From Herbidospora sakaeratensis (lineage in GTDB: Bacteria > Actinomycetota > Actinomycetes > Streptosporangiales > Streptosporangiaceae), in NCBI RefSeq assembly GCF_001570525.1, contig NZ_BBXC01000017.1:1-64000 (forward strand): DNA of 64,000 nucleotides. The letters run 5' to 3'. Each line of letters begins with the position of its first letter. The stretch's first letter is position 1. A program made the position numbers and the translations under genes. The notes under the pieces are model-generated. The model made no database searches and was not told where the DNA came from. It saw only the letters and a list, made by a program, of their open reading frames with translations. Shown here piece after piece: positions 19,863 to 24,356 of this stretch.

Positions 19863-19986
19863 GACTCACTCAACCAACGCAACCCCGTGAAACTTCCCGA
19901 TTTAAGGGGCATTTACTGGCCGAGCTTTCCCGTGGCTTTGTGTGTGCTGCCAAAGGAGATCCGTCCGGATATTGCATGATCGGCAC

Positions 19987-20892
19987 ATGAGGTACGGAAC
20001 GTACATGATCGCCCTAATCATGGGCCTCGGTTTCATGGGCGTCGCGCTTCCCGCGCAAGCTGCCCCGGTCTCCGACACCCAGATCATGGGCCACGCACCG
20101 GTTAAGCAGTACAAGAAAGCCAAGAGAGTCAAGGTGATCAAGTACCGGGTGAAGAAGCGGCACATCCGCATTCGCCCGAAGATTGAATGGCACCACATCC
20201 ACCACTACCACCGCATCTTCCACACGAAGCACTGGCTGCACAAGCACCACCACCACAAGCGCCACTTCGTGCACAGGCACCACCACCACAAGCACGACAA
20301 CCACATCATCCACAACCGCTGCTGGAACAAGCACATCCACCACCTGCACGAGCACCACAAGAAGCCGAAGCACCACCGCCACCACGGCCACCACTTCGAG
20401 GGCATGCAGAGCGCTCAGACCGCTCCTCGCATGGACTGGAACGAGGGCATGGACGCCGGCATCTCGGCCGAGCGTCGCGCTGTGAGCACTTCGGACCGTC
20501 ACTGCCTGCCGGGCCACTTCTACGACGAGACCGGCGATGACGGCTTCGAAGAGGAAGACGGCTTCGAGGACGACGACGACCTCGGTGGCGGCGCCATCGG
20601 CGGCTCGGCCGGTCCGGCCGCCTCGGCTACCACCATCACCGGCGTCGTGCACGTCGCCGGCAAGCCGGTGACCCTGCTCCCGCAGCTGGGCGCTCAGGTC
20701 AACGGCGGCAGCTGCCCCGCGGGTAGCACGCTGGTCGGCGGTTCGTGGACCGTTCCGCTGCTCAGCCAGGGCGTCCCGATGGCGCCCATCCGCAGCGCCG
20801 CCAGCGGCGCCCAGTGGCAGATGCAGTTCATGAACACCGGCAGCCTGCCGACCGTCGTGACGGTCTCGTCGAGCTGCCTGGCCCACTCCTGA
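19987..20892 (+). CDS. Secreted histidine-rich, acidic-patch protein of unknown family
   Basis: A 301-residue protein that I do not recognise. A signal peptide is clear (residues 1-26, ending PAQAA). Next come a basic stretch (40-65), a histidine-rich region (69-136) with about 33 His including two HHHH runs, an acidic patch (181-198, EEED and EDDDD), a Gly/Ala linker and a C-terminal domain (218-301) with Cys 243 and 297. Cys 112 and 173 lie outside it. The layout suggests extracellular zinc, copper or nickel binding, which is inference. Start choice is difficult: AAAGGAG at 19952-19958 is far from the ATG, and a TTG at 19972 would add five residues. No metal transporter is adjacent. Confidence 0.8.
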   Translation: MRYGTYMIALIMGLGFMGVALPAQAAPVSDTQIMGHAPVKQYKKAKRVKVIKYRVKKRHIRIRPKIEWHHIHHYHRIFHTKHWLHKHHHHKRHFVHRHHHHKHDNHIIHNRCWNKHIHHLHEHHKKPKHHRHHGHHFEGMQSAQTAPRMDWNEGMDAGISAERRAVSTSDRHCLPGHFYDETGDDGFEEEDGFEDDDDLGGGAIGGSAGPAASATTITGVVHVAGKPVTLLPQLGAQVNGGSCPAGSTLVGGSWTVPLLSQGVPMAPIRSAASGAQWQMQFMNTGSLPTVVTVSSSCLAHS

Positions 20893-23035: not shown

Positions 23036-23200
23036 CAGACTCCCCTCCCAAGAAGAAAGGGGATCCCCGCGGTCGCCCGCGAGGGTTCCTGGTTCACCGC
23101 CGATTGCCCGCCGGAGAGGGGGTCTCCTTGAGGTCTTGCATCGGCTCCACAGGCGTTTCAGCTCTCCGCAAGCCCTGCGGCGAGGATGTTCGCAGCCGCA
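23036..23200 (-). ncRNA. Candidate omega/reRNA scaffold at the 3' end of tnpB
   Basis: In TnpB systems the guide RNA derives from the transcript covering the tnpB 3' end and the right element end, with the guide just outside it. Here the segment after the stop holds two stem-loops: CCTCGCGG/CCGCGGGG around 23068-23088 and TCCCC/GGGGA around 23041-23064. It ends at TCAA; the next bases on that strand (GGCGCCCTTCTGAGTT, 23016-23031) would be the guide. Position and structure are seen; expression is inferred. Confidence 0.5.
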
Positions 23201-24264
23201 TTGACGTCGCGGTCATGGGCCGCGCCGCAGGCGCACACCCATTCCCGGACGCCCAGCGGCAGCGATTCGGTGACGGCCCCGCAGGCCGAGCACCGTTTGC
23301 TGGAGGGGAACCAGCGGTCGATGACCAGCAGCTCCCGGCCGTACCAGGCCGCCTTGTACGACAGCATGGACCGGAACTCCCGCCAGCCCGCATCGGCGAC
23401 GGCGCGTGCCAGCGAACGGTTCTTGAGCATGTTGGCGACCTTCAGGTCTTCGACGGCGATCGTTTGGTTCTCACGAACAAGCCGGGTGGTGACCTTGTGC
23501 AGATGGTCGCGTCGACGGTCGGCGATGCGGGCGTGAACACGGGCGACGACAAGCCGTGCTTTGGCGCGATTGGCGCTGCCCTTGGCCTTGCGCGCCAAGG
23601 CACGCTGGGCCTTGGCGAGCCTGCGGCGGTCGGCCTTCTCATGGCGGGGGTTGTCGATCTTCTCGCCGGTCGACAGCGTCGCCAGAGTGGTGATGCCCAG
23701 GTCGACTCCGACCGTGACGTTGGTCGGAGGAGGTGGAGCGATCTCGTCTTCGACCAGAATGCACACGAACCAGCGTCCGGCGGCGTCTCTCGAAACCGTG
23801 ACCGTGGACGGCTCCACCCCGTCGGGCAGCGGACGCGACCACACGATGTCGAGTGGGGCGTCCATCTTGGCCAGGGTGAGCCGGCCGTCACGCCAGCGGA
23901 ACGCCGAGCGTGTGTATTCGGCCGAGGCCCGCGACCTCTTGCGCGACTTGAAGACCGGATGCCGGGCGCGCTTGGCGAAGAAGTGCGCGAACGCCGCCTG
24001 GAGGTGCCGCAACGCCTGCTGCAACGGCACGCACGACACCTCGTTGAGAAAAGCCAGGTCTCCGGTGCGCTTCCATTCAGTCAGCGCGGCCGACGACTGC
24101 GAGTAGGAGACACTCCGGCCCTCCTCCTCGCGGACGCGGATGCGTTCTTCGAGGGCCTTGTTGTAGACCAAGCGCACGCACCCGAAGGTCTTGGCCAGTT
24201 CTTCGGCCTGACCGGGGGTCGGGTAGAAGCGGTACTTGTAAGCCCGCTTCACAACGTGCGCCAT
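23158..24264 (-). CDS. tnpB: RNA-guided endonuclease TnpB family protein
   Basis: A 368-residue TnpB/OrfB. The N-terminal helix-turn-helix starts YKYRFYPTP. The RuvC catalytic residues appear intact: Asp in GVDLGI (188), Glu in AVEDLKV (272) and Asp in DRDVNAA (353). The zinc knuckle is CSAC (325-328) with CAC (344-346). TnpB is an RNA-guided DNA endonuclease ancestral to Cas12 and helps retain the element at excised sites. The ATG at 24264 follows the conserved start, and a TTG three codons upstream is possible. Length and motifs suggest an active enzyme. Confidence 0.93.
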   Translation of the reverse strand: MAHVVKRAYKYRFYPTPGQAEELAKTFGCVRLVYNKALEERIRVREEEGRSVSYSQSSAALTEWKRTGDLAFLNEVSCVPLQQALRHLQAAFAHFFAKRARHPVFKSRKRSRASAEYTRSAFRWRDGRLTLAKMDAPLDIVWSRPLPDGVEPSTVTVSRDAAGRWFVCILVEDEIAPPPPTNVTVGVDLGITTLATLSTGEKIDNPRHEKADRRRLAKAQRALARKAKGSANRAKARLVVARVHARIADRRRDHLHKVTTRLVRENQTIAVEDLKVANMLKNRSLARAVADAGWREFRSMLSYKAAWYGRELLVIDRWFPSSKRCSACGAVTESLPLGVREWVCACGAAHDRDVNAAANILAAGLAES

Positions 24265-24356
24265 GGTGAGCAATCTAAATCACAACCGAGCCGGAATCGT
24301 ACACATGTTCGATCCTGTGATTCCAAGATCCGTCTCATCGGGCGGAGGGAGTTCTG

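What the first reader, a model, noticed from the sequence alone, without database searches (positions are those of the whole stretch)
19987..20892. Secreted protein with about 33 histidines in 68 residues plus an acidic patch
Seen: signal peptide, basic stretch, histidine run region (69-136), Asp/Glu cluster (181-198) and a separate Cys-containing C-terminal domain. I know no named family with this order. High His content next to a long acidic patch suggests extracellular metal buffering or pH-dependent binding. It has no neighbouring metal transporter, so it could act in the cell wall on its own.
Basis: partly seen in the sequence, partly recalled or inferred. Interest (0 to 1): 0.75.

Follow-up and report, generated by a model that had tools for sequence, protein, structure and literature searches.

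The report
Histidine-rich relative of bacterial collagen-like proteins
This secreted bacterial protein pairs a conserved histidine-rich head with the end-cap domain found on bacterial collagen-like proteins, and its counterpart in one sister species has a collagen stalk between them, so it is probably a metal- or pH-responsive cell-surface building block rather than a stand-alone metal store.

Summary
In detail: window 19987-20892 (+) encodes 301 aa with 33 His in residues 69-136 and 12 Asp/Glu in residues 181-198. Pfam and NCBIfam give no family over cut-off. The organism is a Herbidospora. Orthologues occur in 7 of 7 genus genomes, own included. Histidines are kept better than the residues between them (30 of 33 against 15 of 35 in G004, Fisher p 2.9e-5), so the His segment looks selected. 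Key result: the G004 orthologue carries a Gly-X-Y collagen stretch (Pfam Collagen 34.6 bits, cut-off 27.2) between acidic patch and C-terminal domain, and that domain is related to the caps of collagen-like proteins, though the cap also occurs without collagen. A second His-headed collagen-like protein is found in 7 of 7 genus genomes. I read the target as a stalk-less member of a modular set: polycationic/His head, acidic linker, optional collagen stalk, Cys-containing cap; most likely a surface structural protein whose head cross-links or binds by metal coordination or pH-switched charge. Metal binding, location and oligomer state are inferred.

The parts
19987..20061 (+). signal peptide, residues 1-25 (start codon not certain: in-frame TTG at 19972 present in 7 of 7 orthologues)
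   Evidence: by eye from translation; alignment of 7 orthologues; pooled dN/dS 0.12 in five close ones; start region
20062..20190 (+). basic segment, residues 26-68, 14 Lys/Arg, net +12
   Evidence: pooled dN/dS 0.23
20191..20394 (+). histidine-rich head, residues 69-136, 33 His and one Cys (112)
   Evidence: His kept 28 to 33 of 33 across the 7 genomes, non-His 15 of 35 in the two most distant
20395..20511 (+). variable linker, residues 137-175, one Cys (173)
20512..20583 (+). acidic patch, residues 176-199, 13 Asp/Glu, net -13
20584..20622 (+). Gly-rich linker, residues 200-212 (GGGAIGGSAGPAA), the place where the G004 orthologue has a collagen stretch
   Evidence: alignment; Pfam Collagen in G004
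20623..20889 (+). C-terminal cap domain, residues 213-301, two Cys (243, 297), related to caps of collagen-like proteins; absent from the G001 orthologue

Best explanation
The gene encodes a secreted structural protein of the Herbidospora cell or spore surface. It belongs to a modular set of actinomycete proteins built as signal peptide, polycationic (here His-rich) head, low-complexity or acidic linker, collagen stalk of very variable length, and a Cys-containing C-terminal cap. In this species the place of the stalk is a short Gly-rich linker. Proposed mechanism: the cap folds and probably oligomerises, as C-terminal domains of collagen-like proteins can. This clusters several His heads, which then cross-link neighbouring molecules or bind wall polymer by Zn/Ni/Cu coordination, or by charge that switches on as His is protonated near pH 6-6.5. 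The +23 and -13 charge blocks (His not counted) allow head-to-linker pairing. Shown: module order, orthology, preferential His conservation, cap homology, collagen stretch in one orthologue. Inferred: surface location, oligomer, metal or pH response.
For: The target sequence alone finds caps of collagen proteins: E 2.0e-7 (G239), 2.4e-6 (G277), 1.6e-5 (G200), 6.7e-5 (G233), 2.6e-4 (G002:C7) (collagen frames seen). A profile of target-orthologue caps finds three non-orthologous places in 120 family genomes (1.4e-6, 5.7e-6, 4.4e-4), all three in collagen frames. Orthologue caps against collagen caps: hhalign E 1.6e-14, probability 98.3 (shallow alignments). The G004 orthologue, with the same neighbours, has Pfam Collagen at 34.6 bits against 27.2. 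A second locus with basic segment, His-rich head and collagen stretch is in 7 of 7 genus genomes (the G001 and G002 copies run into contig ends). A His-headed collagen protein with the same cap lies in another genus (L088, G202; Pfam Collagen 38.5 bits). His selectively conserved. In mussel preCols, collagen proteins end in His-rich domains that coordinate Zn (passages of PMC6477608).
Against: Six of seven orthologues lack the collagen stretch, so loss in two lineages and gain in G004 cannot be told apart (G001 and G004 are sisters). The G001 orthologue also lacks the cap. The cap is not exclusive to collagens: 7 of 22 inspected cap loci have no stalk, four of them with the cap in tandem, and one hit of the target itself (G312, E 1.7e-4) is a tandem-cap protein without collagen (L108). 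The AlphaFold model of the cap is poor (mean pLDDT 40.4), so there is no fold or oligomer evidence. Homology of the head to the second His-headed protein is inconclusive (83 of 1000 shuffles score as high). No sigma-70-like promoter and no match to a recalled Zur consensus. Nothing here shows surface location or expression.
Confidence: 0.55

Rival explanations
1. Extracellular metal buffer or scavenger: the His head binds Zn, Ni or Cu in the wall space to store it or blunt toxicity, and the cap only anchors it.
For: 33 His in 68 residues with selective His conservation; small His-rich bacterial proteins of gastric Helicobacter bind nickel (abstract start of PMC4671568 in the listing).
Against: Several cap relatives carry collagen stalks, which suggests a structural role; no metal transporter recognised among six neighbours; no match within 3 mismatches to a recalled Zur-box consensus anywhere in the window (weak test).
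Confidence: 0.2
2. pH-switched polycation binding to teichoic acid, extracellular DNA or polysaccharide: metal-independent adhesion, the acidic patch keeping the head closed at neutral pH.
For: Residues 26-136 have net charge +23 from Lys/Arg minus Asp/Glu without counting His, and the acidic patch is -13; heads of some other cap proteins are rich in Lys, Arg and Asn instead of His (L092, L095, L098), so positive charge may be the common function.
Against: Preferential conservation of His over the other head residues suggests that His itself matters.
Confidence: 0.17
3. A decaying remnant of a collagen-like protein with no remaining role.
For: Stalk missing in 6 of 7 and cap missing in 1 of 7 orthologues.
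Against: Long open frame in 7 of 7 genomes; pooled dN/dS 0.12 to 0.44 in signal, basic, His and cap segments; all 33 His kept in G005 and G006.
Confidence: 0.05

Closest known systems
Bacterial collagen-like proteins (BclA, Scl and kin)
   Same: Head, optional stalk, C-terminal domain; the G004 orthologue has the Gly-X-Y stretch; the cap is shared with collagen-like proteins of the same taxonomic family. Their general plan is N-terminal domain, collagen-like region, C-terminal domain (passages of PMC8968730).
   Different: The target itself has no Collagen hit. The cap has no Pfam name over cut-off. The words 'actinobacteri', 'histidine' and 'Streptomyces' do not occur in the main text of that review.
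Mussel byssal preCols
   Same: Collagen proteins with terminal His-rich stretches of 20-100 aa, about 20 mol% His, that coordinate Zn (passages of PMC6477608).
   Different: No homology claimed. The target has one His-rich segment (33 of 68 residues) and no collagen block; the G004 orthologue and the second Herbidospora protein come closer.
Hpn and other small His-rich bacterial proteins
   Same: High His content; the Helicobacter proteins bind nickel (listing and abstract starts).
   Different: The target has a signal peptide (by eye), an acidic patch and a separate cap, and is linked to collagen-like proteins. No sequence comparison with Hpn was made.

Membership tests
Bacterial collagen-like proteins | Gly-X-Y repeat scoring as Pfam Collagen | tested here: not met
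   Target has no Collagen hit; the G004 orthologue meets it at 34.6 bits against 27.2
Bacterial collagen-like proteins | C-terminal cap shared with collagen-like proteins | tested here: met
   E 2.0e-7 to 2.6e-4 for the single sequence; hhalign E 1.6e-14; but the cap also occurs without collagen, so this alone does not define membership
Bacterial collagen-like proteins | Trimeric triple helix | not testable with these tools
   needs the purified protein
His-rich metal-binding proteins (Hpn-like) | Measured metal binding | not testable with these tools
   sequence only
Metal-regulated (Zur-type) gene | Zur box upstream | tested here: inconclusive
   0 matches with up to 3 mismatches in the window; the consensus is recalled and comes from no call
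PF04942 CC domain | score over Pfam cut-off | tested here: not met
   15.7 bits against 20.6, over residues 239-253 only

The most novel reading that the evidence does not exclude
Herbidospora makes a bacterial counterpart of mussel byssus: a set of His-headed, collagen-stalked and cap-bearing proteins that assemble on hyphae or spores through metal-His cross-links, with the target as the stalk-less cross-linker unit of that coat.
Probability: 0.2. Interest if true: 0.8.

Novelty: new variant of a known kind. Interest (0 to 1): 0.5.

Why it matters
It ties an orphan His-rich protein to bacterial collagen-like proteins and shows that heads are exchangeable and that the stalk is present or absent between species of one genus. 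If the heads do coordinate metal, bacteria evolved the same His-collagen combination that mussels use for tough, self-healing threads, in a form that can be made recombinantly and tested. Two searches of the held library for His-rich plus collagen-like in bacteria returned one unrelated paper and none.

Tried and rejected
Pfam 'CC' match rejected: below cut-off and 15 residues long. NCBIfam MnmH match (E 2.1) rejected as His-composition noise. PDB sequence searches with both cap profiles gave nothing better than E 0.39. The AlphaFold model of the cap had mean pLDDT 40.4, so no fold search was run. PHROGs gave nothing for the cap; the G004 orthologue matches phage tail-fibre families, best stretches in or overlapping its collagen part, which I take as shared collagen repeat and not as phage origin. 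No plasmid record holds residues 202-301.

Homology of the target's head and the head of the second His-headed protein (L025) was tested by shuffling: 83 of 1000 shuffles reached the score for the window's species; 0 of 1000 for G001, but a reversed control still scored 153 against 190; the G004 run was invalid because my head cut failed and the rest of that protein was included. Left open.

Searches with the L025 head: 13 of 200 family genomes match, 7 of them Herbidospora; by eye none of the other six (L071-L076) joins a His head to a collagen stretch, though L075 has a Gly-rich repeat. In the class, 5 of 296 match, 2 of them Herbidospora; of the other three, L107 and L076 show ordinary or antisense frames by eye and L106 was not read. 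Matches L023 and L024 were dropped: L023 has 3 stops inside and both lie opposite frames that look like other genes (by eye).

No sigma-70-like promoter or terminator-like site near the gene. No Zur box by a recalled consensus. The codon pattern search in the own genome found 8 places against 5 for its reversed control and does not hit the target, so it is no census of His-rich proteins. In one search the L009 row was taken from the wrong end of the gene; the start region was redone for 7 of 7.

Full report

Distribution. All 7 genomes held for the genus, own included, have it. The six other species' loci show the same neighbours in the same order (ABC exporter pair, oxidoreductase, target, MFS transporter, luciferase-like monooxygenase; Pfam names). 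Matches to the head occur only in Herbidospora in 250 genomes of the family (11 with a match) and 297 of the order (13 with a match; the two samples overlap). Outside the genus these calls list seven places; six lie within residues 203-299, one covers 163-239.

Selection on the His head. Orthologue G004 keeps 30 of 33 His but 15 of 35 other residues of the head; G001 keeps 28 of 33 and 15 of 35 (Fisher p 2.9e-5 and 4.1e-4). The other four keep 31 to 33 of 33. Pooled dN/dS among five close genomes (pairs not independent) is 0.44 for the head and 0.29 for the C-terminal domain; it is 2.26 in the 13-residue Gly linker (4 synonymous, 18 nonsynonymous changes). Not all comparisons show constraint: against G004 the linker 137-175 has dN 0.36 and dS 0.16 and the acidic patch dN 0.52 and dS 0.50, while against G001 the acidic patch has 0.24 and 0.56.

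Link to collagen-like proteins. The G004 orthologue is 415 aa and carries HHHHHHGGGIPGPPGPEGPEGPVGPAGP... between acidic patch and C-terminal domain; Pfam Collagen scores it 34.6 bits against a cut-off of 27.2. The target, used in a plain single-protein search, finds the C-terminal caps of collagen proteins in G239, G277, G200, G233 and at G002:C7 (sequences), and one tandem-cap protein without collagen in G312 (L108). Profile against profile the relation is E 1.6e-14. A broader cap profile, which includes collagen caps and so is not an independent test, matches 71 of 341 family genomes, 19 of 68 genera. Of 22 distinct loci from that search printed, 13 have 30 or more residues of unbroken Gly-X-Y, 2 have 15-18 residues and 7 have none; many more places matched and were not read. 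So the cap is a general secreted module, often but not always on a collagen stalk, and the stalk-less target is not alone.

A second His-headed protein. The same genome encodes a 759-aa frame (L025, contig C10) with basic segment, His-rich head, Trp/Asn/Gln linker, long collagen stretch and a different C-terminal domain (Pfam Collagen 106.6 bits). It is found in 7 of 7 genus genomes with collagen visible in each; the copies in G001 and G002 run into contig ends. A third collagen protein of the genome (L037, contig C12) has an Ala/Lys-rich head; its cap aligns with the target's at 29% identity, and its G002 counterpart is hit by the target alone at 2.6e-4. In another genus, L088 (G202) joins a shorter His-rich head (10 His per 40), a collagen stretch and the cap. 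Whether the two Herbidospora His heads share ancestry cannot be told from composition bias.

Loss or gain of the stalk. A tree from two flanking proteins puts G001 and G004 together (support 1.0). The stalk is in G004 only; G001 has GPTGPS at the same place and lacks the cap. Two reductions or one expansion both fit. The four strongest cap matches of the target alone outside the genus have stalks (E 2.0e-7 to 6.7e-5), the fifth, G312, has none (1.7e-4), which leans to reduction but does not prove it.

Mechanism. Inferred: a surface protein whose cap gathers several chains and whose His heads, near neutral pH, coordinate Zn, Ni or Cu between chains, or become cationic below about pH 6.5. His binding of such metals, its pH dependence, and the role of His-rich domains at the ends of mussel collagens are described in passages read of PMC6477608. 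A designed pair of collagen peptides assembles with Co2+ (PMC5456626, listing and abstract start only).

Literature. The ten searches were of the held open-access library only. Searches listed no paper on this protein; of the 79 papers only 10 were listed, none of which holds 'collagen-like', so 69 were not seen.

Noticed in passing
window 23158-24273 (-): A TnpB/OrfB-type IS605 gene (Pfam OrfB_IS605, Cas12f1-like_TNB) next to the conserved block; tblastn at 1e-10 found no copy in the six relatives' loci, which extend past that place.
   Followed up: partly
L060 1066-1797 (contig C12 of the window's genome, about 111300-112030): A very His-rich open frame (26 His per 40 aa) overlaps the end of another, repeat-rich frame, possibly a frame change.
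   Followed up: no
L073, L074, L075 (other genomes of the family): Small proteins with signal-like starts and His/Arg-rich stretches (13-15 His per 40 aa), which suggests that His-rich secreted proteins are not rare in the family.
   Followed up: no
window 19976-19990: A four-codon ATG frame overlaps the target's start codon (ATGA); the same overlap is present in 7 of 7 orthologues. Could be a leader peptide or a by-product of an upstream TTG start.
   Followed up: partly
L096, L099, L101, L103, L108: Proteins with signal-like starts made of the cap domain about three times over without collagen; no Pfam family over cut-off in the three scanned (L099, L101, L103).
   Followed up: partly
L031 7227-9656 and L033 7164-9497: The collagen genes of G239 and G233 read in more than one frame along their length, as if frame-shifted or misassembled; their heads were therefore not read.
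   Followed up: no
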